A DNA stretch of 37,952 nucleotides. It comes from an uncultured Paracoccaceae bacterium (GTDB lineage Bacteria; Pseudomonadota; Alphaproteobacteria; Rhodobacterales; Rhodobacteraceae). Every line of letters starts with the position of its first letter. Position 1 is the first letter of the stretch. Below the pieces are notes generated by a model. That model made no database searches. It was given only the letters and a program-made list of their open reading frames with translations, and was not told the origin of the DNA. The DNA lies in the NCBI GenBank assembly GCA_947499715.1, contig CANMPL010000018.1, positions 1-37,952 on the forward strand, written 5' to 3'. Made by a program: the position numbers and the translations under genes. Positions 999 to 31,151 of the stretch are shown piece after piece.

Positions 999-1032
999 CA
1001 CCAGACGTGAAAATGTGGGGATGCGGGCCGCG

Positions 1033-2877
1033 ATGAAAGCCACGCTTTATACGGCTTATCATAAGCCTTCACCGATCCTGAAAAGTGACGCCGTGGTGCC
1101 GCTGCATGTGGGCTGTGCCAAGGCGGGCGCACCCTTGCCCGGCATGGTCGGCGATCACACCGGCGACAATATCTCTGACCGCAACGCCGCCTATTGCGAG
1201 CTGACGGGCCTCTATTGGGCCTGGAAGAACGACACGGGTAGCAGCCACATCGGCCTGATGCACTATCGCCGCGTGCTGGACCTTGCCGGTCAGGCCGATG
1301 ATCCGATGACCGAGGTATTCGTGCCGCGCTTTGACGTGGCCGGTTGGCTGGGCAAGACCGAAGACTGGCTGGCTGATGCGGATGTCGACGTGGTCGTGCC
1401 CAAACCGCATCTGGTGGGCCATAACCTGACCCGGAATTTCGCCAAGCGCAGCCAGCCGCAGGATCTCAAACTCACGCGCAAGATCATCGCCGCCGATCAC
1501 CCCGACTGGCTTGATGATTTTGACGCCGTGATGGCGGATCGCCGCTTGCTCTTGGGTAATATGTGCCTGATGCGCCGCGACATTCTTGATCGCTACTGCA
1601 CATGGATGTTCGACATCCTTGAAAAGGTCGAAGGTGCGGACGTCGATCGCAGCCACTACAACCCCTATCAATCGCGCTATCTGGGCTTCATCTCTGAACG
1701 CCTGCTGACGATTTTCATGCACCGTCTGCGCCGCGAGGATCCGTCACTGAAAGTGCGCGAGGTGCATATCCTCAACACCGCCAACGCCATGGTGCTGCCC
1801 ACCATTGCTGACGACAGCCTCAATGGGCCGGAGCATATCAACGTGGCCTTTGCTGCCGACCGCGCCTATCTGCCCCATACCGCCGCCATGCTGCGCTCGA
1901 TGTTTGATCACGCCGCACCCGACCGGCAGATCAACCTCTTTTTCCTGCAAACTGACATTGCCCAGCCCGATATGGACCTGCTGGCAGAGGTGGTGGCGAC
2001 CCGGCCCCGCACCACCCTGCACCCGATTGCTGCGGGCAATCCGTTTGAGACCAGCTACCGCTCCGCCAGCCGTGCGCCCTCAAACGCCACGTACAACCGG
2101 TTCCTCTTGTTTGATCTTCTGCCCGGTCTCGACCGGCTGCTTTATGTGGATGTCGACATGATCTTCCGCGGTGACGTGGCTGAGGTTTTCGACACCGATA
2201 TGGGCGGGGGGCCCCTTGGTGCCGTGCCTGATTACATCATGACCCGCACGCTGACGGGACCCACGCGCACCGCCCATCCCGATATCCCCGATATGGGGGC
2301 CTATCACCGCGACACGCTGGGCCTGTCGGATGCGCAGATCGCGGGCTACTTCAACGCAGGCCTGTTGCTGTTTAACTTTGCCGCCATCGACGATGTGCCG
2401 GGCACCGGGGCCAAGCTCATTAAGATGGCCCAGACCGGGCAATATCTGTTCCGCGACCAGGACATCCTGAACGCCTATTTCAAGGACAGCGTCTTTCGCC
2501 TGCCGGCGCGGTTTAATGCCTTTAACTCCAAGTTAGAGACTTATGCCCGCGTGCCGCAGGCCAACTACCGCGAGGCGATGGCAGGCCGCGCCGATCCGCT
2601 GGTGATCCATTATGCCGCCGGTGACCACAAACCCTGGTCGGGCCATGCCATCGGACAGGCGCAGCACTATTGGGATGCGATATCGCGCACGCCGTTCTAT
2701 CCCGAAATCCTGGCAGAGAACCTTGCCGCGCGGATCAAGGTCGAGGCCAAACCGCACCGCCGCCAGCGCCGCATCGTCAGCGTTGGCCGCAAGATCGCCA
2801 ACCGCGCGCCTTTCCTGCGTGCCCCGCTGCTGCGCGTCTATGATGTGCTGCGCAATTTTGCGCGATTTGGCCGATGA
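1033..2877 (+). CDS. two-domain glycosyltransferase: DUF4422 + GT8
   Basis: 614 residues from the ATG at 1033. In-frame starts at 1015 (GTG) and 1021 (ATG) are possible, but MKATLYTAYHKPSP is how DUF4422 proteins usually begin. Residues 1 to about 260 match DUF4422, a family found in capsule and O-antigen clusters, with YCELTGLYWAWKN and the HYRR motif. From about residue 268 a GT8 (glycogenin/LgtC-like) domain follows: INVAFAADRAYLPH opening strand, DVD metal-binding triad at 373-375, NAGLLLFN, and HYAAGDHKPW near the C terminus. GT8 enzymes are retaining and use UDP-sugars. It probably adds two sugars in sequence to the polysaccharide in the cytoplasm; donor and acceptor are not readable. 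The next gene overlaps it by four bases (ATGA). Confidence 0.85.
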   Translation: MKATLYTAYHKPSPILKSDAVVPLHVGCAKAGAPLPGMVGDHTGDNISDRNAAYCELTGLYWAWKNDTGSSHIGLMHYRRVLDLAGQADDPMTEVFVPRFDVAGWLGKTEDWLADADVDVVVPKPHLVGHNLTRNFAKRSQPQDLKLTRKIIAADHPDWLDDFDAVMADRRLLLGNMCLMRRDILDRYCTWMFDILEKVEGADVDRSHYNPYQSRYLGFISERLLTIFMHRLRREDPSLKVREVHILNTANAMVLPTIADDSLNGPEHINVAFAADRAYLPHTAAMLRSMFDHAAPDRQINLFFLQTDIAQPDMDLLAEVVATRPRTTLHPIAAGNPFETSYRSASRAPSNATYNRFLLFDLLPGLDRLLYVDVDMIFRGDVAEVFDTDMGGGPLGAVPDYIMTRTLTGPTRTAHPDIPDMGAYHRDTLGLSDAQIAGYFNAGLLLFNFAAIDDVPGTGAKLIKMAQTGQYLFRDQDILNAYFKDSVFRLPARFNAFNSKLETYARVPQANYREAMAGRADPLVIHYAAGDHKPWSGHAIGQAQHYWDAISRTPFYPEILAENLAARIKVEAKPHRRQRRIVSVGRKIANRAPFLRAPLLRVYDVLRNFARFGR

Positions 2878-3545
2878 TCGGGGACATGTCCTGGTTCAAA
2901 GATGGTCAGATCACGCGCCGCATCTATATCGTGGCCAGTCCCTATAAGACCGCGACCACCACAGTGGGCGAAGCGCTTGTGGCACTTGGCGCAGGCAAAA
3001 AAGACATGCGTTACAAGGCGGGGCTGATCAAGCAATACGCTGACCCGATCCGCACGCTCAATCGCGAGATCAAGCCAAAGACGGACTTTGACGACTGGCT
3101 GGCCGCCAATGAAATCCGCGTCTGTCAGATGCTGGCCGATTTCACCGCCCATGTGGCACCCTTTGATATTTTTTCCGACGCCCCCTTTGGCCATACACAG
3201 CTGCACCCCTTTATCCGCAAGGCGATTGCGCCCAAGGCGCGGTTCATCTGGGTCAACCGGCCCAAGGACGCCTGGCTGGCATCCGTGCGCAAATGGGAAC
3301 TGTCGCACCCCGACACCTACCCCAAGCATGACCTGTGGCACACTGACCCCGATGCCAAGGTTGAGATGTTGATGAAACGCCGCCGTCGCCAGCGGCTGCA
3401 ATTCAAGGCCTTGGCCAAGGCGCGCCCTGACGATTGCCTGACCCTGCATATTGATGAATTGCAGACCTATGACACGCTGGCCCATTTCTGCGGCGTGCCG
3501 GTGCCATCGGCACCTGTTCCGCGCAGTAACGTCAGCCGGTCCTGA
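2874..3545 (+). CDS. sulfotransferase family protein (P-loop type)
   Basis: 223 residues, translationally coupled to the preceding glycosyltransferase by a 4-base ATGA overlap. SPYKTATTT at residues 22-30 fits the 5'-phosphosulfate-binding loop, and FIWVNRPKDAWLASVRKWE around 124-142 fits the 3'-phosphate-binding strand with R129 and S137. Such enzymes move sulfate from PAPS to a hydroxyl group. Coupling to a glycosyltransferase suggests the acceptor is a sugar of the plasmid-encoded polysaccharide; that is inference. It differs clearly from the two other sulfotransferases on the plasmid (4848-5531 and 7731-8486). PAPS synthesis genes are not present here and would have to be chromosomal. Confidence 0.75.
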   Translation: MIGDMSWFKDGQITRRIYIVASPYKTATTTVGEALVALGAGKKDMRYKAGLIKQYADPIRTLNREIKPKTDFDDWLAANEIRVCQMLADFTAHVAPFDIFSDAPFGHTQLHPFIRKAIAPKARFIWVNRPKDAWLASVRKWELSHPDTYPKHDLWHTDPDAKVEMLMKRRRRQRLQFKALAKARPDDCLTLHIDELQTYDTLAHFCGVPVPSAPVPRSNVSRS

Positions 3546-3571
3546 CCGCCCGGTCCAAACGGGCCTGGAAC

Positions 3572-3594
3572 AAAAAGGGGGGCCGCAGCCCCCC
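3572..3594 (-). terminator. rho-independent terminator of the sqdB-like gene
   Basis: GGGGGGC at 3577-3583 pairs with GCCCCCC at 3588-3594 around a 4-base loop. Read on the minus strand, the hairpin is followed directly by TTTTT (3576-3572). It sits just past the stop of the minus-strand gene at 3602. Confidence 0.8.
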
Positions 3595-3601
3595 GATCAG
3601 A

Positions 3602-4759
3602 TTACTTCCACAAGCTGACGCAGGGGATCTTTGTCTTGTCGCAGCGATCGGCGTATTTCGCGGCGATCTCGCGGACCTCATCCATCACACCATCGCCCAG
3701 CTTGATCGGGTCCAGACCCATGCCGAGGAAGCGGTCATTGGCCACGTGCAGATCATTCTCTGGCGCCTCGTTGCGCGGGTTTTCCAGATAGGCGATTTCC
3801 GCCTCCATCTGGTCGGCAATCATCTTGGCCAGATCGCGCACCCGGTGGGTCTCTGTCATCTGGTTGAGGATGTTCACACGCTCGCCCGATTGCGGCGGGT
3901 TGTTCAGCGCCAGCTCAATACATTTGCAGGTATCGGAGATGTGGATGAACGCGCGGGTCTGACCGCCGGTGCCATGCACCGTCATCGGATAGTTCACCGC
4001 CGCCTGCATGATGAACCGGTTCAGCACAGTGCCGTAATCGCCATCATAGTCAAAGCGGTTGATCAGACGCTCATCTTGCCGGGTCTCTTCGGTCTGTGTG
4101 CCCCAGACGATGCCCTGATGCAGGTCGGTGATCTTTACGCCGTCGTTCTTGTTATAGAAGTGGAAGAACAGCTGATCCTGGCTTTTGGTCATGTGGTAGA
4201 TCGAACCGGGGTTGGTCGGATACAGAATTTCCTGCTCGCTTTCGCCTGCGGGCGTGTCGATCTTCACCTTCAGATAGCCCTCGGGGATCTGCATGCCTGC
4301 GGTGCCGTAGCCGTAAACACCCATCGTGCCCAGGTGCACCAGATGGATATCCAGACCCGATTCGACGATCGCGGCCAGCACATCATTGGTGGCATTGAGG
4401 TTGTTGGACACGGTGTAGCGTTTGTGGGCCGCCGATTTCATCGAATAGGGCGCGGCACGCTGCTCGGCAAAGTGGATCACCGCATCGGGCTTTTCCTCTT
4501 GGAACAGGGTCAGCAGGCGGTGATAGTGCTCGCCCACGGTAAAGTTCTGAAACTTAATCTCTTTCCCGGTCAGTTCTTTCCAGACGCGCAGACGCTCACC
4601 GATGGGGCGAATAGGGGTCAGGCTGTCGACTTCCAGTTCGACGTCGATGTTCCGACGGCTCAGGTTATCGACGATCGTGACGTCATGACCGCGCTGGGAC
4701 AGATAAAGGGCGTTTGGCCACCCGCAGAAACCATCACCACCGAGAACGATAATCTTCAT
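3602..4759 (-). CDS. sqdB: UDP-sulfoquinovose synthase (SQD1/SqdB family)
   Basis: 385 residues. This SDR-fold enzyme makes UDP-sulfoquinovose from UDP-glucose and sulfite, giving the sulfonated head-group donor of sulfolipid in phototrophs. Recognised by the NAD-binding GGDGFCGW (8-14), the family signature [12 protein letters not shown] (96-107), GTMGVYG with T145, and Y188/K192 of the YxxxK pair; T145, Y and K match the catalytic set described for SQD1. Length is normal. The start follows AAGG nine bases upstream, and a 10-bp palindrome CCAAATTTGG lies at 4775-4784. The other sulfolipid genes (sqdA, sqdC, sqdD or sqdX) are absent, and all neighbours are polysaccharide genes, so the sugar may be destined for the polysaccharide. 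It is transcribed alone, with its own terminator. Confidence 0.88.
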
Positions 4760-4847
4760 GTTGTATTGCCTTATCCAAATTTGGGTTGCGGACTGCTTTA
4801 GTCAGCTATGAGGGGGAAATCAAACCGGAACCCATGACAAACGGCAA

Positions 4848-5531
4848 TCAATAGCCAAATGTCTCAAAGTCCTGCGCATAGATCTGTTCCAACCGCGCTT
4901 TTTGCGCTGGGGTTACATCGAATGTCGTGCTTTTGCGGCCCTTGTTCTTATAAGGAACCGGCAAATTCGGCAATTTGGATGCGGCCTTGATAATCGCCAT
5001 ATCGGCATCCATCGTTTCCAGCTTACCGATATGATCATACTGGATCACATCGACCATCATCACTGAATGCTGCGGCCGCCAATGCGGGTTCATCGCATGG
5101 GGGTCCTGCCGTTCCAATGCCTCAATAAACTGGTCAAATGACACCTCGGCCTGCGGATCATCCCGGCCGAGGATGGCGTTAAATTCTTCCTGGAATTTAG
5201 GCATCTTCAGCTTGTTGCAATAGCCCGAGACGGCCCTTTTGATTGGATCGCGGGCAATCCCAAAACCATAAAGAGAGCCATCGCGCATTTTCCGATGCAT
5301 CACATCCCACCCGACCTTCAACGGGCGGGGGACAGTGCGGTTGGTATGCACATTGCCGACTTTGAAATGCGGGTCGTCGCGATAGATCCGTTCGAATAGC
5401 AATTTCAGTGATGAACACCCGACTTTGGGCGTGGGCATATAGGCGATGTCGTGATCCGGCAGGACGTAGAACATCATCAGACGGTGGTTTTCCCCATAGG
5501 CGTCTACTACCGTTTCGCGATCAAACTTCAT
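4848..5531 (-). CDS. carbohydrate sulfotransferase (Sulfotransfer_2-like)
   Basis: 227 residues from the ATG at 5531, preceded by AGAGG six bases upstream. The reading frame stays open to 5810, but that extension has no family similarity and would overlap the divergent gene. PAPS-binding loop TPKVGCSSLK at residues 34-43; 3'-phosphate motif IARDPIKRAVSGY at 92-104 with R94 and S102; HWRPQHS at 150-156, typical of chondroitin/HNK-1-type carbohydrate sulfotransferases. Eukaryotic relatives are Golgi membrane proteins; this one has no signal or membrane segment and should act in the cytoplasm on sugar intermediates. It is divergent from the epimerase at 5665 with a 133-bp shared upstream region. 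The acceptor is unknown. Confidence 0.82.
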   Translation of the reverse strand: MKFDRETVVDAYGENHRLMMFYVLPDHDIAYMPTPKVGCSSLKLLFERIYRDDPHFKVGNVHTNRTVPRPLKVGWDVMHRKMRDGSLYGFGIARDPIKRAVSGYCNKLKMPKFQEEFNAILGRDDPQAEVSFDQFIEALERQDPHAMNPHWRPQHSVMMVDVIQYDHIGKLETMDADMAIIKAASKLPNLPVPYKNKGRKSTTFDVTPAQKARLEQIYAQDFETFGY

Positions 5532-5664
5532 CTTTGGCCTCTGGGAATCTGAATTGGCGCTACAAAGACTTTGGCGCTCCCTAAAAGTCAATGCTACCGG
5601 CCAGCCCGCAGCGGTTATTGCACAGGCATTGTGCTTGGCGGCTGGTCTCGCTAAGAGCCGCACG

Positions 5665-6657
5665 ATGGCCTTAACTGAAATGGCGGGTATGATGCAGAAT
5701 TCTTCTCCTTTGGTGTTGGTGGGTGGCTTTGGTTTTGTGGGCCGCAATATCATTGAACAGGTGCAAACCGATCCGGCGTTTTCGGGCCTTGCGCCTGTCA
5801 TCGTCGACAACCTGACAAACCCCGCACCGGGCTATGAAGACCTTGATCTGCCACAACACATCGGCGGCTATCAGGACCAGGCCGCGATTGATTTTGTGAA
5901 CGGCATTGAAACACCCGAAGGGGCAGGGCGCATTTTCGTGTTTCTGGCCGGTGAAACCCGCGTGGCGGAATCCAAGGATCGCCCGCTTGATTTCATCGAC
6001 GCCAATATCGTCGAACCCTCGCGCTTTGTGATGCAGGCCGTGCAACCCGGTGACCGGTTTATCCTGATCTCCACAGCCGGTGCCCTGTTCGATGGCAGCT
6101 TTGAGGTCCGCGTCGACAGCCCCGTGGGTCCGAAAAACTTCTACGGTGCCACCAAGGCCGCAGAAGAGATGATCCTCGAAAAGCTCGTCAGCTTACGCGG
6201 TGGCACCTTTAACGTGATCCGCCTCACAAACGTCTTTGGCAAATATTCCGACAACAAGAAATCCGCCGTGCACGCCTTTACCCGTGCTGCGATTGCGGGT
6301 GCCGAAGTGACGATCAACGGCGACGGCGGTCAGTCCCGCGATTTCATCTATGCCGGTGACGTGGGCTACGGCGTGGCGACATTGGCCGCCAAACTGCGCG
6401 CAGGCGAAGACACCGCAGATGTGAACATGCTCGGGTCAGGCGTCTCGACCACGCTGATGGATGTGGTCGCCGCCATTGAAGAGGCGACAGGCAAACCCTT
6501 GGCCTATCAAAAGGTGCCCGCCAAGGAACTGCTGGCGACTGAGCCGCGCGACGTGATTGCCAATGGCGACGATGTGAAGGTGCTTTTGGGGGATCACATC
6601 ACATCTTTTGTCGATGGCCTGCGTGAAACCCACGGCTATTACCTTAACCGCGGTTAA
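5665..6657 (+). CDS. NAD-dependent epimerase/dehydratase (extended SDR)
   Basis: 330 residues from the ATG at 5665, chosen because AAGAG lies seven bases upstream; the frame is open back to 5554, and later ATGs at 5680, 5689 and 5692 remain possible. Rossmann motif GGFGFVG at 20-26, ISTAGALF with S136/T137, and the catalytic YGATK with Y160 and K164 place it in the GalE/RfbB-type nucleotide-sugar SDRs. The substrate cannot be read from sequence. The context (UDP-sulfoquinovose synthase, sulfotransferases, methyltransferase) suggests it makes or epimerises an NDP-sugar for the polysaccharide. A run of phased 11-bp repeats follows its stop. Confidence 0.82.
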   Translation: MALTEMAGMMQNSSPLVLVGGFGFVGRNIIEQVQTDPAFSGLAPVIVDNLTNPAPGYEDLDLPQHIGGYQDQAAIDFVNGIETPEGAGRIFVFLAGETRVAESKDRPLDFIDANIVEPSRFVMQAVQPGDRFILISTAGALFDGSFEVRVDSPVGPKNFYGATKAAEEMILEKLVSLRGGTFNVIRLTNVFGKYSDNKKSAVHAFTRAAIAGAEVTINGDGGQSRDFIYAGDVGYGVATLAAKLRAGEDTADVNMLGSGVSTTLMDVVAAIEEATGKPLAYQKVPAKELLATEPRDVIANGDDVKVLLGDHITSFVDGLRETHGYYLNRG

Positions 6658-6669
6658 GACTTTCATGCG

Positions 6670-6713
6670 CATGCTTTGTGCATGCTTTGTGTATGGTTTC
6701 TGCATGGGTTGTG
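6670..6713 (+). repeat. four tandem 11-bp repeats upstream of the methyltransferase gene
   Basis: Consecutive 11-bp units: CATGCTTTGTG (6670-6680), CATGCTTTGTG (6681-6691), TATGGTTTCTG (6692-6702) and CATGGGTTGTG (6703-6713). The first two are identical and the others degenerate. The 11-bp period is close to one DNA helical turn. They lie between the epimerase stop (6657) and the methyltransferase start (6765). Confidence 0.75.
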
Positions 6714-6764
6714 GCCCATTGATTTGGGGCGTTCGGTGCCTCCTGATAAGGAAGATTATGTAAC

Positions 6765-7730
6765 ATGATCGCGCCTGATATGACCCCCGACGCCTTTGTC
6801 GCCCGTCTTATTCAGGACATCCCGCAGCTGCTGCATCTGGATGCGGATGGGCAGTTGCTGGTCATCCCCGATCATGGCCACCGCAATGTCAGCCGCCGGA
6901 TTTTGACCCGGACCGTGGGGCATTTGCCCGACCCGCAAACGATCGCCCATCGGTCGTTTTACCGCGACCTTGAAGCGATGATCCGCGAGATGGATCCAAA
7001 GGCTGCCAAGTCCATCGGGCTGGTCAATATGATGCCGCCACCGGGCGTCAATGTGATGGCCCGCAACAAGCAGGTGTTCTTTGATTTCCGCAACGCCGAC
7101 GCGATTGAGGCCAACCTGCGCGCCGCCGGTTTTGACTTTGCCGATGGGCCCCGCGTGCTGGACTTTGGCTGCGCGTCGGGGCGGACATTGCGCACCCTGG
7201 AGCTGGCCTATCCGCAGGTGAATTGGTCCGGCGTGGACGTCATTGCGGGTGACATCACCTGGGCCAAAACCGCGATGCCGCAGATCGATTTTCAGACCTC
7301 CCCCCAGACCCCGCCACTGGCCTTTGAGGATCAGTCTTTTGATGCGGTTTATGGGGCTTCTGTCTGGTCGCATTTTGCCGCCGCCACAGCGCGTGATTGG
7401 TTTGCTGAAATGGCCCGGATCATCCGCCCTGGCGGGTCACTTTGCTTTACCGCCCATGGCTATTACGACCTTGCAAAAAAGGCCATCCGTCAGAATTTAA
7501 CGCTGGATCTGGCGGCGGAAATCCGCGCCGAAATGGACAGCAGCGGTCATGCGTTTTGGGCCAATATCGCCCAAGGCGCGCGCGGCGATCAGAGCGATAT
7601 CTGGGGCACATGTTTTCTGACCCCGGACTGGGTGGAACAGCAGGTGCTGGGCACTGACTGGACCCTTGCCCGTCACGCCATTGGCGAATGGGGCGGGCGG
7701 CAAGATATCTATGTGCTGCAGCGGCGCTGA
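6765..7730 (+). CDS. class I SAM-dependent methyltransferase
   Basis: 321 residues. SAM-binding motif I VLDFGCASG at 131-139, acidic post-motif residue D158 (GVDV), and motif FDAVYGASVWSHF at 192-204 followed by RIIRPGGSLCFTAHG, the usual order in class I Rossmann methyltransferases. Residues 1-125 form an extra N-terminal part that was not recognised. The start has AAGGAAG at 6748-6754; between it and the ATG lies an ATG immediately followed by TAA (6758-6763). Within this cluster it most likely O-methylates a sugar residue or chain end; inference from context only. Confidence 0.8.
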   Translation: MIAPDMTPDAFVARLIQDIPQLLHLDADGQLLVIPDHGHRNVSRRILTRTVGHLPDPQTIAHRSFYRDLEAMIREMDPKAAKSIGLVNMMPPPGVNVMARNKQVFFDFRNADAIEANLRAAGFDFADGPRVLDFGCASGRTLRTLELAYPQVNWSGVDVIAGDITWAKTAMPQIDFQTSPQTPPLAFEDQSFDAVYGASVWSHFAAATARDWFAEMARIIRPGGSLCFTAHGYYDLAKKAIRQNLTLDLAAEIRAEMDSSGHAFWANIAQGARGDQSDIWGTCFLTPDWVEQQVLGTDWTLARHAIGEWGGRQDIYVLQRR

Positions 7731-8486
7731 TCAGCCCTGATCAAAAAGCCGCGCGTTCATATATTGGCGAAAGCTTTCGCGCTTGGCCTCAGCCTCTTCG
7801 GGGCTGACCAATTTCTGAAGATTGCGGGAAATTGTGCCATCCCCCGGCGTCAGCCCCATCTTGCTGGCATGGGCGCGGAGCGCAGCCTCGCAACCGGCTT
7901 CATCGGCGGCGATATCCTCATATTCCAGCGACAGGCAGTCATCGCCTAACATCTTCACAAGATTAGACAAAGTCTGGTTTTGTTTGATCAGCTGGCTGGA
8001 TTTTTGCAAGATGTGATAGTTCATCTCGTCGGTATCGGCAAAATTCCGGCTTTGGCTGCCGCTGATTTCCTTCTCGCCGGTATCGTGCCAGACCCCGGTT
8101 TCCAACGCCTTGGCATGGGACAGCGCCTGTTCAAAGATCGCACGCCGGCGCAGAGCCACGATATTGACCGCATCAAATTCGGCCCGCGCCCATTTGATGA
8201 TCTCGGACATGGCGCGCCGTGGGCTGTGGGTCTCTCCTGTCAGCATCGCTGCGACACGGGGGGCATAGCCCACCATGACCTTCACCCCAAGCGTCGGCGA
8301 TGTATCGCTGTCTGCGCCGACGTCGCGCAACCGGGCCATGATATCAGCCGGTGTTGAGGGTTCTTCTGCGCGCAACAGCTTGAGGAAATGTTCCTTGGGG
8401 CGTCCCAATCCGCCGATCATGCGGATATCCCCTGCCAACATGGTTGACCCGGATCGGGGCGTTGCCAATACCAATGTGAAATTCAT
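7731..8486 (-). CDS. Stf0-like sulfotransferase
   Basis: 251 residues. The N terminus LATPRSGSTML (about 7-17) is the PAPS-binding loop, and GRPKEHF at 28-34 matches the GRPxEYF-type motif of the Stf0 family, whose characterised mycobacterial member sulfates trehalose at the 2-position. Further matches are LGVKVM and the basic ALRRRAIFEQALSHAKA helix. The start is supported by AAGGGG six bases upstream. It is convergent with the methyltransferase (one-base gap) and divergent from the large glycosyltransferase. It is the third sulfotransferase on the plasmid, from a third family. Whether it modifies trehalose, a lipid sugar or the polysaccharide is unknown. Confidence 0.82.
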   Translation of the reverse strand: MNFTLVLATPRSGSTMLAGDIRMIGGLGRPKEHFLKLLRAEEPSTPADIMARLRDVGADSDTSPTLGVKVMVGYAPRVAAMLTGETHSPRRAMSEIIKWARAEFDAVNIVALRRRAIFEQALSHAKALETGVWHDTGEKEISGSQSRNFADTDEMNYHILQKSSQLIKQNQTLSNLVKMLGDDCLSLEYEDIAADEAGCEAALRAHASKMGLTPGDGTISRNLQKLVSPEEAEAKRESFRQYMNARLFDQG

Positions 8487-8560: not shown

Positions 8561-11500
8561 TTGCAAATAGACAAATTCCCGATTACGCCGCTGCCTGACC
8601 TCAGCCAGTATAAAGCCCCTGCCACACCCGGACCCCGCCTGCGGGTCTGCATCGCAACCGAGGAAATCGTCGGCCCCGTGCGCAACGGCGGCATCGCCTC
8701 GACCTATTACCATCTGGCCCGCCTGCTGACGGCACAGGGCCATGATGTGACGGTCTGCTATCTCAAGGGGACGCGGGTCGAGAACAAAGACGCCGATCAC
8801 TGGATCAAATGGTATGGCGAAATGGGCGTGAATTTCGTCCCCATGCCACAGGTCGACAGCGACGCGCCAACCATGTGGCAGCGGCGGCAATACAGTTTCT
8901 ACCAGTGGCTGAAAAATGTGCCCGACCCTTATGACGTGGTGCATGTGTCCGAATGGCGCGGCGGGTCCTATTACGCGCTGCAGGCCCGGCGTCTGGGGCT
9001 GGCGTTCAAGGACACGTTGTTTCTGGTCAAGGCCTCCTCGCCCCACATCTGGAACCGCCACTACCAGATGGCATTTGTGAACAACAAAGACATGCTGTCC
9101 ACGATGTATGCCGAGCAGCAATCGATCGAGCTGGCCGATATGGTCATCGGCGGCTCTGCCCACCTTTTGCGGTTTATGGAACACACCGGTTACACCCTGC
9201 CCGAAGGCGACGCTTATGTGCAGCCTAACGTTCTGCTCTTTGATGATGTGGCGGTGCAAGACCAGCGCGGACCGCTGGAACCAGGCGACCGTGTGCACAC
9301 AAAAGAGCTGACGTTCTTTGGACGTCTTGAGGCCCGGAAGGGGCTCGAAATTTTCTGCACCGCGATGGATTATCTGGTGGCCCGTGGCGTGACACCAGAA
9401 AAGGTCAGCTTTGTCGGCAAACAGGGGCAGAACATGCCCACCACACCCGCCACCCGCAATCTGGACGTGATCATGGCCCGCGCCAAGAACTGGCCCTTTC
9501 CCATTGATATCCATACAGGCTTTGACCAGCCCGACGTGCTGTCATTTCTGACTGCCGCCCCGCGCATCGCGGTGATGCCCTCGCTGATCGAAAACTCCAC
9601 CATGGCCGCCTATGAGGCGCTGCTTTACAAGGTGCCCTTTATCGCCACCCGGACGGGGGGCACGCCGGAACTGATCGCGCCTGAAGACCACGATGACATG
9701 CTGGTGGATGCCAACCCCAGATCGCTCGCCGATGGGTTGGAACGGGTGTTGAAAGAAGGCGGCAAGGTCGGGCGCTGTTCGTTTGACAATGCCGATAACC
9801 TGGCCACATGGGACGGGTTCCACGACCATCTGGCAGGCCGCAAGGGTGAGGGCACGCTGACCCAGATCATCAAGCGCGCGCCCTGGACGGAGGCCCCCAG
9901 CGTCAGTCTGTGTGTCTTTTCTGATGGCGATACGCTCGCGTTAGAGACGTTTTTGGACAAGGCCACCTTTGCCGCAGGCGACGGCTTGGCCGATATTGTC
10001 GTGGCCGTGACAACCCCGTCAGAGGCAGCGACCGCTTTGGCTGCGCGGCACGCAGGTGTGACCCTTGTGGACGCCAGCGAAATGACATGGGGCGAGGCCT
10101 GGAATGCAGCCGCCGCCAAAGCCACGGGCGCTGTGCTGCATTTCCTGCGTGCCGATATCCATCAGCCGCTGGAGGGGTTCGCAGGTAAGATCGCGCAGTC
10201 ATTTTCCACCCCCGGGCTGGCCGCGGCCGGGTCGGTCTGGCAGCGCCGCACGGTCAATGAAAAGGGCGTTGCACAACTGACCCGCGTGGTGCCGATGGGC
10301 GATGATCTGTCGCTCACGGCGCTGGATTACACCCACCTGTCGGGCCGGGGGATCAGCATCCGCACCGATCACTTCAAGGCATTGGGCGGGTTTGACCCGA
10401 TCTTTGCCATGGAAGGCATCGCGCAGGACCTGCTGATGCGCGCCCGTGATCTGGGCCGCGTCGTGGTGATCCCCGAAATGCTCTACCAAGAGGACCCCGC
10501 CGCCGAGACGCTGCAGCTCAATACCGCCAACGCACAATATATGGCGATGAACAGCCTGATGAATGCGCTGGATTATCCCAAAAAACGGGTGTTGCACGCA
10601 CTCAATATCCGCAGCGCGAACCACCATGACAACCCGCTCAGCCGCGGCATCGCCGCGCCAAAACCGCCGGTTACATTGATGACACCGGCCAGCGGCACGG
10701 CCGACCTGATGCTGACGCTGTTGCCCATTGGCGGGGTGCTGATCCAGACCAAGACCCCACTGGAGGCGCTGACCGTAGCCATCGAAGGAGCCGCCTCCGC
10801 GCCGCTGGCATGGGACAATGACGCCCAAGGGTCCAGCGCCTATCTGGACCTGCCCGGTCTGATCGGCGGAGAGATCACATGGCCGCGCCAGATTGATATG
10901 ACAGCCACCACCGCAGGCCAGACTCTGACCCGACAGATCCGCACCCAGATGCAGGCCCATGGGCAGATTGCCCTGTCGGCGGATGCGCCCGGCCTGCATC
11001 AGATCAGCGATGATGGCACAGCCTCACCGCGCCTGATCAGCCTGGCCCTGCCGCCCACCGACGGCAGCCTCAATGAAAATGCCATGCGGGTCACTTATGA
11101 CAGTGCCGGGCAGATGCTGCACCTGTGGTCGCCGCACCCCCGTCCGCTTGTGATCGTCCGCGATGGGGCCGACCCGGTGCCGTTGTTGTTTACGCCCGTC
11201 GGCAGGACAGGGTTGATGGCGGGCTATGATCTGGCCCCGCTTCTGACGGATCGCAGCGCCCCGGTGACGCTGGATCTGACCGAAGAGGATGAGGTGCTAC
11301 GCAGCATCACCCTTGTACCCGGCCCCAAAGGGATCTGGGGGCTATACAGCCCGCGCTTTGGCGTGACCCCAGTGGACACCACATCCGACACCGCTGCCTT
11401 GACGGCCGTGAATGTCAGCCGGGCCGCCGTCGGAACAGAGGCCGCCATGTCCGGTGTCCGGCTGGGGCTGGATGAGTTTGGCGCCCGCCTTGTGATCCGC

Positions 11501-12232
11501 CGCGGCAAGGACCAAGCAGGACAGATCCTAACTGTGGTGCCAGATCAGGGTGACGCACTGTCGCTGCATCTGGCAGGCGGGCCGCGTGGGGCGACAGCGG
11601 CCGTCGAACTGCGTCGCTTTGGCGGCACGGGACCCACCCGAATTGCCCTGCACGAGGGTGACGCCACAGGCCCGGTACTGCGCCGTTTGCGGCTTTGCCC
11701 CGGTGCAGAGAACGTGATCTACGTCGTGGCCGAGGATGGCGGCAGCCTGCTGACACTGGGCCGGGTGGGTCAGTTTCCGGCCAACCCCGGCGGGCGAGGG
11801 CTGCACAACCTGTCGGCCCCGGCAGCCCACTTCCAACCCGACGCCCGCCCCAGACTGGCGCTGCGGTTGCAGGGCAATACCCTACATCTGACGGTGGCCA
11901 ATGCACGGCAAGCCGCAAGCGTTGATCTGCGCGGTGCACCGGGGGTGTCTCATGTGGAACTGACGTGGAAAGGGGCGTCTTCCGGGCATGATACGTTGTC
12001 CAAGATCCGCAACCGCCTGCGGGCCCCGATGCGGGCGCTGCTGCCGCGCGGCACGCTGACGGGCACGCTTGATCTGGCCCCGCTGATGCAAGGCACACCG
12101 CCCAGGGCGCATACGCTGGAACTGCAAATCCGCCAGCCCGGGCTAACCGCCCGGCGCACGGTGCAGCTGACCTACGACAGCGACGGGGTGTTCTATGCCG
12201 CCTCGCCCGAGAATGTGATTAACGAGGCATGA
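8561..12232 (+). CDS. giant glycosyltransferase: GT4 + degenerate GT2-like domain + beta-rich C-terminal region
   Basis: 1223 residues from a TTG start preceded by AAAGG at 8548-8552; no ATG or GTG start occurs near it. Residues about 26-430 are a GT-B, GT4-type domain with GGIASTYYHLARLL, FFGRLEARKGLEIF and the ENSTMAAYE E-x7-E motif (E344, E352) with FIATRTGGTPELI. Residues 447 to about 640 resemble a GT2 domain ending in FKALGGFDPIFAMEGIAQDLLMRA, but the expected acidic DxD is replaced by ADIH, so it may not be catalytic. Residues from about 700 to the end (over 500) match no family known to me; they look beta-rich, with recurring LDLAPL strings. Its stop overlaps the next gene by four bases (ATGA). 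No transmembrane segments seen. Confidence 0.83.
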   Translation: MQIDKFPITPLPDLSQYKAPATPGPRLRVCIATEEIVGPVRNGGIASTYYHLARLLTAQGHDVTVCYLKGTRVENKDADHWIKWYGEMGVNFVPMPQVDSDAPTMWQRRQYSFYQWLKNVPDPYDVVHVSEWRGGSYYALQARRLGLAFKDTLFLVKASSPHIWNRHYQMAFVNNKDMLSTMYAEQQSIELADMVIGGSAHLLRFMEHTGYTLPEGDAYVQPNVLLFDDVAVQDQRGPLEPGDRVHTKELTFFGRLEARKGLEIFCTAMDYLVARGVTPEKVSFVGKQGQNMPTTPATRNLDVIMARAKNWPFPIDIHTGFDQPDVLSFLTAAPRIAVMPSLIENSTMAAYEALLYKVPFIATRTGGTPELIAPEDHDDMLVDANPRSLADGLERVLKEGGKVGRCSFDNADNLATWDGFHDHLAGRKGEGTLTQIIKRAPWTEAPSVSLCVFSDGDTLALETFLDKATFAAGDGLADIVVAVTTPSEAATALAARHAGVTLVDASEMTWGEAWNAAAAKATGAVLHFLRADIHQPLEGFAGKIAQSFSTPGLAAAGSVWQRRTVNEKGVAQLTRVVPMGDDLSLTALDYTHLSGRGISIRTDHFKALGGFDPIFAMEGIAQDLLMRARDLGRVVVIPEMLYQEDPAAETLQLNTANAQYMAMNSLMNALDYPKKRVLHALNIRSANHHDNPLSRGIAAPKPPVTLMTPASGTADLMLTLLPIGGVLIQTKTPLEALTVAIEGAASAPLAWDNDAQGSSAYLDLPGLIGGEITWPRQIDMTATTAGQTLTRQIRTQMQAHGQIALSADAPGLHQISDDGTASPRLISLALPPTDGSLNENAMRVTYDSAGQMLHLWSPHPRPLVIVRDGADPVPLLFTPVGRTGLMAGYDLAPLLTDRSAPVTLDLTEEDEVLRSITLVPGPKGIWGLYSPRFGVTPVDTTSDTAALTAVNVSRAAVGTEAAMSGVRLGLDEFGARLVIRRGKDQAGQILTVVPDQGDALSLHLAGGPRGATAAVELRRFGGTGPTRIALHEGDATGPVLRRLRLCPGAENVIYVVAEDGGSLLTLGRVGQFPANPGGRGLHNLSAPAAHFQPDARPRLALRLQGNTLHLTVANARQAASVDLRGAPGVSHVELTWKGASSGHDTLSKIRNRLRAPMRALLPRGTLTGTLDLAPLMQGTPPRAHTLELQIRQPGLTARRTVQLTYDSDGVFYAASPENVINEA

Positions 12233-14172
12233 GCCGCACCGCCATCCTTGCAGGTGATCTGGCCGCTTTGCCCGTCGCCTCGACCGCATTTGCCCGATTG
12301 GTCGCACTGGCGCAAAGCCTGCCCGGTGCCGCCGTGCTGCATTGCCCCGCCGCCACGGGGCCCCTGCCTGCCGCCGCCGCCGCCCTGCGCGATGCGGATA
12401 TCAAACTGGCCGAACTGCCGGTGCCAAAGGTGCGCACCTCAGGCTCGCCCCATGGCAAGGCCGCCGCTGTGGCCCTGCGGACATGGGAGAGCCTGAAGGC
12501 GCAAAAGTTCGACACGCTGCATGTGATCCATGATCTGTCGGCGGCGCATCTTCTTTTGGGCGCGCGGCATCTGGGTCTCTGGGATCATCCGGCCCGCATC
12601 GTGGCCCATGTGGTCGATCCGCTGCAGCGACAGTTTGAAACCGGCCGCGCGACGCCCGCCAATTACGCAGCCTTCGCCAGTTGTTTCATGGACCGCGCCT
12701 GCGTGGCCCGTGCCGATACCGTGGTGGCCCATAGCGCCACGGTGCGCGACTGGCTGGTGGCCCGTGACTGGCGCGCTGCAGATCAGATCACGCTGGCCCC
12801 CGGTCTGGCGCGCATGCCCGGCCCGGCGCGGCATGCCCCCGATCAGGCGCAGCCCTTGGCGCGGCTGATCTTTGCTGGCACCCAGACCGACACGCGTGGG
12901 CTGACCACATGTGCCTATGCCCTGCGGGTGCTGGTGGCGCGTGGCGTGGATATCCCGCAGGTGGTGATCTCGGGCCGCGCCTTGGATGACTTTCCCGCCG
13001 AACCCTTCCTTGCCGAACTGTCAGACCAAACAGGCGTCCCGATTGAGGTCCTGCCCGTCACCCAGCGCAGCGCGCTCCTGGATCTGGCCCGCCAGCCCGG
13101 CAGCTTGACATTGGTGGTGCCACAAACCGATGACGCCCCTGCCGTCCTGCCCGAGCTTTTGGCCACCGACGCCCCGGTCATTGCCTCGGCCGCCGGGGAC
13201 ATCCCCCGCATCGCAGGTGCTGACAGCGACATCCTTTGCCCGCCAGCCGATCACATCGCGCTGGCTGACCTCATCGAAACCCGCATCACAGCGGGGCTGA
13301 CCACCGCCTATCAAAGCCACCGCGCGGGTGATCTGGCGCAGAACGCAGCCGCCTGGGATGCGCTGCACGCGGGCCTGCCAAACCTGGCCTTTGCCCCCGC
13401 AATAGACACTGAAACCCCCTTGGTCAGTGTCTGTATCGCCCATCACAACCGGCCCCAGATGATCCGCGACACGCTGGATGCGGTGGTGAACCAAGGCTAT
13501 CCAAACTTTGAAATCGTGGTGGTGGATGACGGCAGCACGCCCGATAATCGCGCCGCTTTGGCTGATGTGCTGACAGGTTATCCCGCCGCGCGTATGGTGC
13601 CGCAGGACAACCGCTATCTGGGGGCTGCGCGCAATACAGCAGCACAGGCGGCCAAGGGCAAATACCTGCTGTTCAAGGACGACGATAATATCTCGATGCC
13701 CCATGAGATCGCGACATTTGTCCGCGCGGCTGAACAGACCAACGCAGAGATTCTCACCTGCTTTAGCGACAATTTCAGCGGTGACGGCCTGCCCGATGAG
13801 ACCAGCATCGATGGGGTGCGTCGGGTGCCTTTTGGGCAAGACGTGATCTACGGGATGTTCCGCAACGGCTTTGGCGATTCCAATTGTTTTGTGCGGCGCG
13901 ATATCTGGGAAAAGCTGGGCGGCTTCACCGAGCATTTCCGGGTGGGGCTGGATGATCAGGAGTTCTTCATGCGCGCCACGCTGGCCGGTTTGCGCGTCGA
14001 TGTGTTGCCAGAAGCGCTTTATTATTACCGGCTGGGCGGGGCCAAGATGAAACGGTTCCATGTGGCAAAGCTGGCCAATGCGCAACGCTTGCTGGCCCCT
14101 GTGCTGGCCAGCGGGCGGTTTGACCCCAATCTGATGCCGCTGTTCTTGCTTGCCCGCAGCTTGCAGGCCTAA
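12229..14172 (+). CDS. two-domain glycosyltransferase: GT4-like + GT2
   Basis: 647 residues, coupled to the preceding gene by ATGA at 12229. Residues 1 to about 385 look like a GT4-type GT-B fold with weak motifs (LIFAGTQTDTRGLTTCAYAL, then PELLATDAPVIASAAGDIPRI), although the E-x7-E pair is not evident. Residues from about 396 are a clear GT2 domain: LVSVCIAHHNRPQMIRDTL, VVVDDGS with D433-D434, KDDDN at 483-487 for the metal site, and LDDQEFFMRATLAG for the catalytic base region. GT2 enzymes are inverting. The same GT4-then-GT2 order occurs in the larger upstream protein, suggesting a shared origin. Eight bases separate it from kpsM, linking chain assembly with export. Confidence 0.83.
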   Translation: MSRTAILAGDLAALPVASTAFARLVALAQSLPGAAVLHCPAATGPLPAAAAALRDADIKLAELPVPKVRTSGSPHGKAAAVALRTWESLKAQKFDTLHVIHDLSAAHLLLGARHLGLWDHPARIVAHVVDPLQRQFETGRATPANYAAFASCFMDRACVARADTVVAHSATVRDWLVARDWRAADQITLAPGLARMPGPARHAPDQAQPLARLIFAGTQTDTRGLTTCAYALRVLVARGVDIPQVVISGRALDDFPAEPFLAELSDQTGVPIEVLPVTQRSALLDLARQPGSLTLVVPQTDDAPAVLPELLATDAPVIASAAGDIPRIAGADSDILCPPADHIALADLIETRITAGLTTAYQSHRAGDLAQNAAAWDALHAGLPNLAFAPAIDTETPLVSVCIAHHNRPQMIRDTLDAVVNQGYPNFEIVVVDDGSTPDNRAALADVLTGYPAARMVPQDNRYLGAARNTAAQAAKGKYLLFKDDDNISMPHEIATFVRAAEQTNAEILTCFSDNFSGDGLPDETSIDGVRRVPFGQDVIYGMFRNGFGDSNCFVRRDIWEKLGGFTEHFRVGLDDQEFFMRATLAGLRVDVLPEALYYYRLGGAKMKRFHVAKLANAQRLLAPVLASGRFDPNLMPLFLLARSLQA

Positions 14173-14180: not shown

Positions 14181-14984
14181 ATGACCGATACTGCCCTGCC
14201 CCAGCCGAAACTGGCCAGACCTCGCTTTCAGGCGGCCCGCACCATCATGGCGCTGATCCTGCGCGAGATGGGGTCGACCTATGGCGCCTCGCCGGGGGGC
14301 TATGTCTGGGCGGTGCTACAGCCTGTGGGCATGGTGATGTTTTTGTCGCTGGGCTTTTCGCTGGTGGTGCGCTCGCCCTCGTTGGGCACCAGTTTCATCC
14401 TGTTTTATGCGACAGCCTATCTGCCGTTTAACCTTTATGGTGACGTGGCCACCAAGACCGGGGCGACCCTGCGCTATGCCCGCGCCCTGTTAGCCTATCC
14501 TGCGGTCACATGGGCCGATGCGGTGCTGGCGCGCTTCATCCTGAATGTGCTGACCAATTGCACCGTCTATTGCATCGTGATGACCGGGATTTTGATGTTT
14601 GTGGACACCCATACCATTCTGGATGTCGGGCCGATCCTGATTGCCATCTCAATGTCTGCGCTTTTGGGGCTGGGGGTTGGTCTGTGCAATGCGGTGCTGG
14701 CCGGGCTTTATCCGATCTGGCAAAACATCTGGGGCATTGTGACCCGGCCACTGATCCTGGCATCCGGTATTTTCTATATCTACGAAGATCTGCCCGGCGG
14801 CGCACAAGACGTCCTGTGGTGGAACCCTTTGATCCATATGTCTGCTGTTGCCCGCGAAGGCTATTACCCGACCTATGACCCGCAGCATGTATCGCTGGCC
14901 TATGGCTATGGCTTGTCCTTGGTCCTGATCTTTTTAGGGCTGGTGTTCATGCGCTCGCAGTACACGACTATTCTAGAACGGTGA
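14181..14984 (+). CDS. kpsM: capsule/polysaccharide ABC transporter permease (KpsM/ABC-2 type)
   Basis: 267 residues with about six hydrophobic segments. LILREMGSTYGASPGGYVWAVLQPV near residues 30-54 is the signature start of KpsM/CtrC/BexB permeases. These pair with a KpsT ATPase to move polysaccharide across the inner membrane. The matching ATPase is encoded far away at 29425, with KpsE at 28142, so the export genes are split across the plasmid. It is the third gene of the 8561-14984 operon. Its 3' end overlaps the convergent phosphomannomutase gene by 17 bases. Confidence 0.88.
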   Translation: MTDTALPQPKLARPRFQAARTIMALILREMGSTYGASPGGYVWAVLQPVGMVMFLSLGFSLVVRSPSLGTSFILFYATAYLPFNLYGDVATKTGATLRYARALLAYPAVTWADAVLARFILNVLTNCTVYCIVMTGILMFVDTHTILDVGPILIAISMSALLGLGVGLCNAVLAGLYPIWQNIWGIVTRPLILASGIFYIYEDLPGGAQDVLWWNPLIHMSAVAREGYYPTYDPQHVSLAYGYGLSLVLIFLGLVFMRSQYTTILER

Positions 14985-16332
14985 CCAAAGCCGCCAGCGC
15001 CCGGGTCAGCAGGTCCTGCGCGGCTTGCGCCGATCCACTCTCGGTATAGCAGCGCAGTTCGGGTGCATTGCCCGAGGGACGCAGATGCACGATCTGCCCA
15101 TCCGTTGCCGTCATCCGCAACCCGTCTGTGGTGTCTGTGCTTGCCTCTGTCAGGGCAAGATTTGCCAGAAATGTGGCTCTGTTCAGGGGGTTTTTCTGCC
15201 AATCGGCTACCAAAGCCTGTGATGTGGCGGTGGCCACATTCTGCAATCTGTCGCTGGCGGTAAAGCGTTGCGGTTGATCCGCCAGAACCACAGACAGGCC
15301 ACCCTTTTGCGCCGCCAGTGCCAACACCGCGACCAAGGGCAGCACTGCATCGCGGGTCATCAGCGCCGGCAGGGGCCCCGCCGGGCCCACCGCATCAAAG
15401 CCCAAAAGGAAGCCGCCGTTCGCCTCATATCCGACCACGCCATCGCCCTGCATGGCTGCAATGACATAGGGGGATCCGATGCGCGTGCGGGTCACATGGG
15501 CAAAGACATCCTCTGCCCCCGTGTTGGAACTAACCGGGGTGACCGCCCGGGTGGCCCCAAGGGCGGCACCTGTGATCTGGCCCAGCACATCGCCGGGAAT
15601 GACCATGCCGCTGGCATCCGTCAGCAAGGGCCGGTCGCCATCGGCATCGGTGCTGAGGATCGCGTTGTATCTGCCATCTCTGGCGCAAGCCTTTAGCAGG
15701 GTGCGGGTGTCGGCGCTGACGGCTTCGGTGTCGACGGGCACAAATTCGTCAGCGCGCGCCAGTGCCGTGACCTGCGCGCCCAGATCCCGCAACAGCGTGG
15801 GCATCAGATCCCGCCCCACGGCAGATTGTGCATAAAACCCCAGCGTTAGACCCTGCAAAGCGCCCGCATAGGCGCGTTTGTAGCGCGCCGCATACCGGCC
15901 CCCAACACCCGGGTCATCTACCAAAACCCCCTGCCCCATGGCGGGCGCGCCGCCCAAAGCAGCCAGGATCGCGGCCTCGTCCGCTTTGGTGATCTCACCC
16001 GCAGAAGTATAGAATTTCAGCCCGTTGCGGTCAGCGGGGATATGGCTACCGGTGACCATCACCGCCCCCTGCCCGGCCTCCAGGGCGGCCAGGGCCAGCG
16101 CGGGGGTTGGCACCTCTCCGGCCCATGTCACATCCACGCCGGCTGCCAGCAGCGCATCGCGCACCACCCTCGCCAGCATCGGCGATGAGGGGCGCAGGTC
16201 ATGGCCGACCCAGACACAACCACCCACCGGACAAGCGGCCAGATAGGCTTGCACATGATCGGTGATCAGATCGGGCGTCAGGGCCGTGACCAACCCACGC
16301 AGTCCACTTGTGCCAAAGGCTGGCGTCGTCAC
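14968..16332 (-). CDS. phosphomannomutase/phosphoglucomutase (alpha-D-phosphohexomutase)
   Basis: 454 residues, normal length for the family. The enzyme interconverts hexose-6-phosphate and hexose-1-phosphate, the entry to GDP-mannose or UDP-glucose. The phosphoserine loop is VTGSHIPADRNG with S96 (SHIP rather than SHNP, a variant I recall from other phosphomannomutases), the metal loop is DADGDR at 229-234, the sugar-specificity loop is GYEANGG near 301-307, and the phosphate-binding loop RPSGNAPELR is near the C terminus. The GEANGG-type loop contains a Glu and Asn that fit dual glucose/mannose use. The ATG overlaps the stop of the upstream dehydratase (ATGA at 16329-16332), so the two are translationally coupled. 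Confidence 0.88.
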   Translation of the reverse strand: MTTPAFGTSGLRGLVTALTPDLITDHVQAYLAACPVGGCVWVGHDLRPSSPMLARVVRDALLAAGVDVTWAGEVPTPALALAALEAGQGAVMVTGSHIPADRNGLKFYTSAGEITKADEAAILAALGGAPAMGQGVLVDDPGVGGRYAARYKRAYAGALQGLTLGFYAQSAVGRDLMPTLLRDLGAQVTALARADEFVPVDTEAVSADTRTLLKACARDGRYNAILSTDADGDRPLLTDASGMVIPGDVLGQITGAALGATRAVTPVSSNTGAEDVFAHVTRTRIGSPYVIAAMQGDGVVGYEANGGFLLGFDAVGPAGPLPALMTRDAVLPLVAVLALAAQKGGLSVVLADQPQRFTASDRLQNVATATSQALVADWQKNPLNRATFLANLALTEASTDTTDGLRMTATDGQIVHLRPSGNAPELRCYTESGSAQAAQDLLTRALAALVTVLE

Positions 16333-18221: not shown

Positions 18222-18305
18222 TGTGTCCCCTTCGCAGCCCTGTCCGGACCGCAAGACCATTTAGCCCCGATCGCGCAAAAGCGTCCAGCCGCTTGCCCTG
18301 AACAG

Positions 18306-25950: not shown

Positions 25951-28094
<2,144 letters not shown>

Positions 28095-29413: not shown

Positions 29414-29424
29414 GGGGCGGGGCG

Positions 29425-31134: not shown

Positions 31135-31151
31135 ATCGTCAGCCTTTCGCT

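What the first reader, a model, noticed from the sequence alone, without database searches (positions are those of the whole stretch)
2874..8486. Three sulfotransferases of three families plus UDP-sulfoquinovose synthase on one small plasmid
Genes at 2874, 4848 and 7731 carry distinct PAPS-binding loops (SPYKTATTT, TPKVGCSSLK, TPRSGSTML), and sqdB at 3602 makes a sulfonated sugar donor. All are interleaved with glycosyltransferases and export genes. This predicts a polymer carrying both sulfate esters and C-linked sulfonate, an unusual combination and a candidate undescribed polysaccharide system.
Basis: partly seen in the sequence, partly recalled or inferred. Interest (0 to 1): 0.72.

Follow-up and report, generated by a model that had tools for sequence, protein, structure and literature searches.

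The report
Plasmid for a sulfur-rich surface polysaccharide
A small circular plasmid of a marine bacterium carries the genes to build and export a sugar polymer that probably bears sulfur in two chemical forms, sulfate esters and a sulfonated sugar known mainly from photosynthetic membrane lipids and some archaeal glycans.

Summary
The contig closes to a 37,875-bp plasmid with three sulfotransferases of three Pfam families and an SQD1/SqdB-type UDP-sulfoquinovose synthase in an ABC-type polysaccharide cluster.

The stronger result: this SqdB belongs to its own class. Of 20 lipid-type relatives sampled (64-66% identical), 20 have sqdD and sqdC, and none has a sulfotransferase or sulfite-making CysH nearby. 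Of 82 window-type loci (75-98%), none has sqdD or sqdC. Of the 41 at 84% or more, 29 lie among homologues of this cluster's polysaccharide genes and 15 have CysH, 11 of them just downstream. The ST4 subfamily was found in 3 of 238 family genomes, always at such a locus.

Against a strong reading: sulfotransferases in general are not significantly commoner here than in SqdB-free polysaccharide loci (23/41 versus 8/20, p=0.28). The exact gene set recurs in 1 of 82 loci, and sulfotransferase slots vary between sister plasmids. The chemistry is untested. Best reading: a sulfated, sulfoquinovose-containing polysaccharide, a new variant of a known kind.

The parts
1015..2877 (+). DUF4422 + GT8 glycosyltransferase; its stop overlaps the start of ST4
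   Evidence: PF14393 6.8e-61, PF01501 9.4e-29; present at all 13 related loci with an ST4 hit, overlapping, touching or within 10 bp of it by mechanical ORF ends in 12 of 13
2874..3545 (+). ST4, Sulfotransfer_4-family sulfotransferase
   Evidence: PF17784 in 13 of 13 alignment members; AlphaFold model pLDDT 92; 16 of 16 PDB matches at E<=0.001 are sulfotransferases, TM-score by query length 0.44-0.57
3602..4759 (-). SqdB/SQD1-type UDP-sulfoquinovose synthase, polysaccharide class
   Evidence: NF041015 336.5 bits; 1qrr 312 bits; LGTMG, YxxxK and EQRAAPYSM motifs conserved; grouped apart from sqdBDC proteins
4848..5531 (-). ST2, Sulfotransfer_2-family sulfotransferase (probable start 5531, not 5810)
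   Evidence: PF03567 1.1e-24; start codons listed
5680..6657 (+). NAD-dependent sugar epimerase/dehydratase (probable start near 5680)
   Evidence: PF01370 1.8e-23; 21 of 41 near loci and 0 of 20 SqdB-free loci
6765..7730 (+). SAM-dependent methyltransferase
   Evidence: PF13649 4.3e-13
7731..8486 (-). Stf0-type sulfotransferase
   Evidence: PF09037 3.5e-10; weak match to 1tex, E=0.0053
8561..12232 (+). GT4-type glycosyltransferase, 1223 aa
   Evidence: PF13692 9.1e-14
12229..14172 (+). GT2-type glycosyltransferase, 647 aa
   Evidence: PF00535 4.5e-28
14181..14984 (+). ABC-2 permease (KpsM-like)
   Evidence: PF01061 6.4e-15
14968..16332 (-). phosphoglucomutase/phosphomannomutase
   Evidence: PF02878 1.1e-25
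16329..18260 (-). CapD/FlaA1-type nucleotide-sugar enzyme
   Evidence: PF02719 3.6e-117
21603..22226 (-). initiating sugar-phosphate transferase
   Evidence: PF02397 5.4e-42
22211..22990 (-). second sugar epimerase
   Evidence: PF01370 2.6e-8
24645..25763 (-). outer-membrane polysaccharide export protein (Wza-like)
   Evidence: PF02563 9e-17
25984..27132 (+). UDP-galactopyranose mutase (galactofuranose donor)
   Evidence: PF03275 1.4e-74
27060..28094 (+). GT2 glycosyltransferase
   Evidence: PF00535 9.5e-17
28142..29413 (+). KpsE-like inner-membrane export protein
   Evidence: no Pfam hit; its homologue in Pelagovum (9e-116) is annotated 'sugar transporter' and lies between the ABC ATPase and permease genes
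29365..30093 (+). ABC ATPase (KpsT-like)
   Evidence: PF00005 2.8e-14
30157..33934 (.). parB, parA, repA: plasmid partition and replication
   Evidence: PF02195, PF13614, PF10134

Best explanation
This plasmid encodes an ABC-transporter-type extracellular polysaccharide that contains sulfoquinovose and is decorated with sulfate. SqdB joins sulfite to UDP-glucose to give UDP-sulfoquinovose. Glycosyltransferases of the cluster build sulfoquinovose (and probably galactofuranose, from the UDP-galactopyranose mutase) into a chain begun by the sugar-phosphate transferase. Sulfotransferases ST4, ST2 and Stf0 add sulfate from PAPS before export; ST4 probably acts on the residue added by the DUF4422-GT8 enzyme encoded next to it. 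KpsM/T/E-like and Wza-like proteins export the product. PAPS comes from an ATP sulfurylase-APS kinase and sulfite from CysH, both encoded elsewhere in the genome; many relatives carry a further CysH gene beside sqdB. Shown by computation: gene families, gene order, the separate SqdB group and the recurrent linkages. Inferred: the enzyme activities, the acceptors, the place of sulfation and the polymer.
For: SqdB family and conserved motifs. Two SqdB classes: lipid type with sqdD and sqdC in 20 of 20 sampled loci, window type with neither in 82 of 82 at the same thresholds; the two form separate groups (SH-aLRT 99 and 91 in a quick tree). Of 41 near loci, 29 have homologues of the cluster's polysaccharide genes and 15 have CysH, 11 within 300 bp on the same strand, against CysH in 0 of 20 SqdB-free polysaccharide loci (p=0.001). 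ST4 subfamily found in 3 of 238 genomes, all at this kind of locus. ST4 has a sulfotransferase fold. PAPS and sulfite supply genes in the genome. No sqdD match and no other SqdB in the genome.
Against: No chemistry. No glycosyltransferase can be assigned to UDP-sulfoquinovose. Of the 41 loci at 75-83% identity only 6 have homologues of this cluster's polysaccharide genes at the strict thresholds used (other kinds of polysaccharide gene would not be seen), and in some Maricaulis-type loci the gene lies near genes that read like gap and pgk (by eye), so the class may not serve polysaccharide everywhere. Sulfotransferases in general are not significantly enriched over SqdB-free loci (23/41 versus 8/20, p=0.28). 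The window plasmid and its three sister plasmids showed no CysH (for the sequences; only the stretches were scanned for it).
Confidence: 0.6

Rival explanations
1. SqdB feeds a membrane sulfolipid (sulfoquinovosyl diacylglycerol) and only the sulfotransferases act on the polysaccharide; their neighbourhood is incidental.
For: The bacterial SqdB proteins whose role I recall serve lipid (recalled, no call). This genome has no other SqdB, so a lipid pathway would depend on the plasmid gene.
Against: sqdD and sqdC accompany 20 of 20 sampled lipid-type genes and 0 of 82 of this type. No sqdD match in the genome (the tool warns that an empty answer without a genome known to match shows nothing). A non-homologous SqdX-type glycosyltransferase was not searched for.
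Confidence: 0.12
2. The polymer carries sulfoquinovose but the sulfotransferases modify something else (a surface protein, lipid or small molecule), so the two sulfur forms are not on one molecule.
For: Foldseek matches of ST4 include tyrosylprotein sulfotransferases; the sulfotransferase slots vary between sister plasmids.
Against: ST4 overlaps, touches or lies within 10 bp of the DUF4422-GT8 gene in 12 of 13 related loci. The likeness to tyrosylprotein sulfotransferases is at fold level (12-17% identity among the first 16 matches). Sulfotransferase profile hits also occur in 8 of 20 SqdB-free ABC-type polysaccharide loci.
Confidence: 0.15
3. The SqdB-like enzyme makes a different product from UDP-glucose (for example an unsulfonated keto or ene sugar), so there is no sulfonate; the polymer is simply sulfated.
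For: 21 alignment positions separate this class from the lipid class; score below the NF041015 cut-off.
Against: SQD1 motifs retained; the three sqdBDC-locus proteins scanned score no higher on NF041015; CysH, which makes sulfite, lies within 300 bp downstream in 11 of 41 near loci.
Confidence: 0.1

Closest known systems
sqdBDC sulfolipid operon of Rhodobacterales
   Same: SqdB of the same family, 61-66% identical
   Different: linked to sqdD and sqdC in 20 of 20 sampled loci, with no hit of the cluster, sulfotransferase or CysH profiles in the stretches scanned; a separate group in the tree
Synechan xss cluster of Synechocystis (PMC8205485, passages read)
   Same: plasmid-borne sulfated exopolysaccharide cluster with two sulfotransferases of distinct subfamilies
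   Different: Wzx/Wzy type, cyanobacterium; the word sulfoquinovose does not occur in the main text
Sulfated capsular polysaccharide cluster of Vibrio sp. KMM 8419 (PMC11641403, passages read)
   Same: ABC transporter, glycosyltransferases, three sulfotransferase genes
   Different: on a chromosome, with its own PAPS synthesis genes; no UDP-sulfoquinovose synthase mentioned in the passages read
Archaeal sulfoquinovose glycans (Haloferax volcanii SQ-hexose repeats, PMC4343526; Sulfolobus glycan, PMC9549778; passages read)
   Same: sulfoquinovose in a surface glycan rather than a lipid
   Different: protein-bound glycans of archaea; here a bacterial polysaccharide export cluster on a plasmid with sulfotransferases
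[quoted passage not shown] 2016; only the title seen, in a reference list; paper not held)
   Same: extrachromosomal polysaccharide clusters of roseobacters
   Different: no rhamnose operon stood out among the window's Pfam matches, though it was not searched for by name; the sugar set here includes SqdB and Glf

Membership tests
SQD1/SqdB UDP-sulfoquinovose synthase | full-length similarity to SQD1 | tested here: met
   1qrr 6.5e-92 over residues 2-384
SQD1/SqdB UDP-sulfoquinovose synthase | SDR catalytic Thr and YxxxK, plus SQD1 loop motifs (roles recalled) | tested here: met
   window has LGTMG, YHMTK and [14 protein letters not shown] in 119, YxxxK in 121 and EQRAAPYSM in 114 of 121 aligned rows
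SQD1/SqdB UDP-sulfoquinovose synthase | score above the NF041015 cut-off of 575 bits | tested here: not met
   336.5 bits; three sqdBDC-locus proteins score 326-338, so the cut-off excludes those too. The claim made is SQD1-like, not an NF041015 equivalog
SQD1/SqdB UDP-sulfoquinovose synthase | makes UDP-sulfoquinovose from UDP-glucose and sulfite | not testable with these tools
   needs an enzyme assay
sqdBDC sulfolipid operon | sqdD and sqdC next to sqdB | tested here: not met
   no sqdD hit at E<=1e-4 and no sqdC hit at E<1e-25 in 82 of 82 related loci; neither among the window's genes
PAPS-dependent sulfotransferases (ST4, ST2, Stf0) | Pfam match over gathering score | tested here: met
   45.5, 88.4 and 40.3 bits against 22.8, 22 and 22
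PAPS-dependent sulfotransferases (ST4) | sulfotransferase fold | tested here: met
   model pLDDT 92, Foldseek
PAPS-dependent sulfotransferases (Stf0) | sulfotransferase fold | tested here: inconclusive
   model too poor, pLDDT 45 with 3 closely related rows
ABC-transporter-dependent polysaccharide export locus | KpsM, KpsT, KpsE/Wza-like genes and initiating transferase | tested here: met
   the KpsE-like protein has no Pfam hit
Sulfated polysaccharide cluster with own PAPS synthesis genes (the hallmark stated in PMC11641403) | PAPS synthesis genes in the cluster | tested here: not met
   none among the window's Pfam matches; the one APS kinase match in the genome is on another contig

The most novel reading that the evidence does not exclude
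A second, so far unrecognised branch of sulfoquinovose biosynthesis exists in bacteria: a distinct SqdB group, often with its own sulfite-making CysH and carried partly on plasmids in Rhodobacterales, supplies sulfoquinovose as a building block of extracellular polysaccharides that are also sulfated by exchangeable sulfotransferases. Marine roseobacters would then be makers, and not only degraders, of non-lipid sulfoquinovose.
Probability: 0.5. Interest if true: 0.75.

Novelty: new variant of a known kind. Interest (0 to 1): 0.6.

Why it matters
[quoted passage not shown] If this SqdB class feeds polysaccharides, there is a further bacterial source of the compound in the sea and a chemically unusual doubly anionic polymer. 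The group gives a simple marker for finding producers, several of which are named strains.

Tried and rejected
A GT8-sulfotransferase fusion at L025 was suspected from an 811-aa ORF and rejected: the DUF4422-GT8 ORF lies in another frame (coordinates) and Pfam finds only the sulfotransferase in the long ORF.

General enrichment of sulfotransferases next to SqdB was tested against 20 SqdB-free KpsE loci that I picked by hand from the matches in 147 of 238 genomes (two of the 20 are only about 11.4 kb). It was not significant (p=0.28). The profiles were built on the SqdB loci, which favours those loci, and the loci are not phylogenetically independent. As a spot check I gave 7 sulfotransferase profile hits to Pfam: 6 were confirmed, L042 was not; 5 of these 7 are from the 41 near loci, 4 of them confirmed. 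The count of 23 of 41 is therefore an upper estimate.

The lipid-type sample is 20 of the 43 places at 61-66% identity, the best-scoring ones but for one that I passed over (G216), so it is not random.

Searching the family with the Pfam Sulfotransfer_4 model at E<=1e-6 missed even the window gene, so that count (63 of 238) was not used for the subfamily. The subfamily search scores at most 11 candidates a genome after a loose first look. Greedy gene calling by ORF length was unreliable in this GC-rich DNA and was used only as a hint for Maricaulis. The fold of Stf0 could not be modelled. Left out of the tree: L001 and matches under about 330 residues, and L125-L127, whose contig lengths equal those of L045, L037 and L032.
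Full report
WHAT IS THERE. The window is a whole contig, C18 of a 44-contig, 4.0-Mb assembly. Its two ends share 77 identical bases, so it closes to a 37,875-bp circle. One 594-aa ORF, a metalloprotease with RTX repeats, crosses the join. RepA, ParA and ParB make it a plasmid. Contigs of three relatives (SqdB 98, 98 and 94% identical; 38,817, 38,088 and 37,915 bp) have the same 77-base terminal overlap and so are also closed circles. Of 28 window gene entries compared by tblastn (the metalloprotease counted as two), 28 have a match on the G238 contig, 27 on G240 and 23 on G239.

THE FOUR GENES. Pfam places the three proteins in Sulfotransfer_4, Sulfotransfer_2 and Stf0, each above the curated cut-off. 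ST4 has no credible relative among solved structures by sequence, so it was tested by fold: 13 of 13 alignment members hit PF17784, the model has mean pLDDT 92, and all 16 PDB matches at E<=0.001 are sulfotransferases, with moderate TM-scores of 0.44-0.57 by query length. Stf0 has a weak match to the solved Stf0 (1tex, E=0.0053) and could not be modelled, so it rests mainly on Pfam. ST2 has no solved relative by sequence. SqdB aligns end to end with Arabidopsis SQD1 and keeps its motifs.

TWO CLASSES OF SQDB. In 238 genomes of the same family, 59 have an SqdB-like match at E<=1e-60. Identities fall into a group at 77-100% (12 genomes), a group at 61-66% (43 places), and nine more distant matches at 38-55%. 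I fetched 20 of the 43, nearly the best-scoring 20 (64-66% identical), with about 9 kb on each side: 20 of 20 have sqdD and sqdC close by, and 0 of 20 have a sulfotransferase or CysH hit by the profiles used. Three plasmid loci of this type agree. The window class was sampled by a pattern scan of a one-genome-per-species collection (226 stretches matched, 146 encode a relative, best 80 kept) plus two plasmids. In these 82 loci there is no sqdD hit at E<=1e-4, and the best sqdC hit (4.8e-10) is far weaker than the weakest of the 20 lipid-type loci (6.3e-65). In a quick tree of 121 proteins, drawn with a midpoint root, the lipid group has support 99 and the window group 91. The nine more distant matches were not resolved; four of them lie near polysaccharide or sulfotransferase hits (L110, L112, L113, L114).

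NEIGHBOURS OF THE WINDOW CLASS. Of 41 loci at 84% identity or more (35 of them with at least 4 kb on both sides), 29 have at least one homologue of 11 polysaccharide genes of this cluster, 23 a sulfotransferase profile hit, 15 a CysH (11 within 300 bp on the same strand), 21 the epimerase and 19 DUF4422-GT8. Of 41 loci at 75-83%, the figures are 6, 3, 4, 2 and 2. In Pelagovum pacificum and in strain M382 the CysH is annotated phosphoadenylyl-sulfate reductase and matches the Pfam family. CysH makes sulfite, the second substrate of UDP-sulfoquinovose synthase (established knowledge), so this pairing is the best hint at the reaction.

CONTROLS. Against 20 SqdB-free ABC-type polysaccharide loci, CysH (15/41 versus 0/20, p=0.001), ST4 (12/41 versus 0/20, p=0.006), DUF4422-GT8 (19/41 versus 0/20) and the epimerase (21/41 versus 0/20) are associated with SqdB. 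Sulfotransferases of any kind (23/41 versus 8/20, p=0.28) and Glf (13/41 versus 4/20, p=0.38) are not. The loci are related to one another, so these p-values are a guide only. ST4-subfamily genes were found in 3 of 238 family genomes at E<=1e-20, and all three lie on the contig of a window-class SqdB, about 0.06 to 3.2 kb from it; one of the three is the window itself. ST4 overlaps, touches or lies within 10 bp of DUF4422-GT8 in 12 of 13 related loci and is 1.2 kb away in the other.

VARIABLE DECORATION. Between the window and G238, SqdB is 98% and Stf0 96% identical, but ST2 is 49%. G240 has no ST2 match in its whole genome and its methyltransferase is 47% identical. G239 has a 47% ST2, and its contig shows no match to ST4, Stf0, the methyltransferase or the two large glycosyltransferases. 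The backbone is kept while tailoring genes are exchanged, as expected for surface polysaccharides under diversifying selection (inference).

SUPPLY. The same genome has an ATP sulfurylase-APS kinase fusion on contig C10, giving PAPS, and a CysG/sulfite reductase/CysH cluster on contig C7, giving sulfite. It has no other SqdB match and no sqdD match.

LITERATURE. The search for sulfoquinovose with exopolysaccharide gave 28 papers. I saw the listing, and passages from three of the 28 (PMC9549778, PMC12555021, PMC7922415), and met none that reports sulfoquinovose in a bacterial extracellular polysaccharide. The library holds only open-licence papers and most of the 28 were not opened, so this is not proof of absence. 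One metagenome paper lists UDP-sulfoquinovose synthase in a section on the potential for EPS production (PMC12555021). The glycans with sulfoquinovose that I met in the passages read are archaeal.

VERDICT. Its main idea is plausible, and the gene linkages found here add to it, but the emphasis should shift from 'three sulfotransferases' to 'a polysaccharide-class SqdB'. The chemistry remains to be tested.

Noticed in passing
window 37048-37950 and 1-957: A serralysin-like M10 metalloprotease with RTX repeats spans the contig join; the plasmid also carries a 1044-aa RTX protein (18465-21599) and a CAP-domain RTX protein (23020-24465).
   Followed up: partly
window 35127-36854: A HAD protein resembling FkbH (name recalled; only weak HAD-type Pfam matches), 92-98% identical on the three sister plasmids; no acyl carrier protein was looked for.
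   Followed up: no
Maricaulis-type loci such as L076 and L081: Window-class SqdB at 75-77% identity lies within 1.5 kb of genes that read like gap (8 loci) and pgk (7 loci) by eye, with no hits to this cluster's polysaccharide genes at L076 or L081; its role there is unexplained.
   Followed up: partly
L119 and L120 (G188 contig C1): One genome holds two nearly identical window-class SqdB genes about 0.28 Mb apart.
   Followed up: no
L110 (G120): A 55%-identical SqdB lies beside two Stf0-type profile hits (the one given to Pfam was confirmed), perhaps a further polysaccharide-linked class.
   Followed up: partly
L042 (Gilvimarinus chinensis): A gammaproteobacterial record carries a window-class SqdB at 84% identity that falls among Rhodobacterales proteins in the tree, which suggests transfer between classes unless the record is contaminated.
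   Followed up: no
window 33960-34967: DUF2793 protein; proteins of this domain recur on the related plasmids; function unknown.
   Followed up: no
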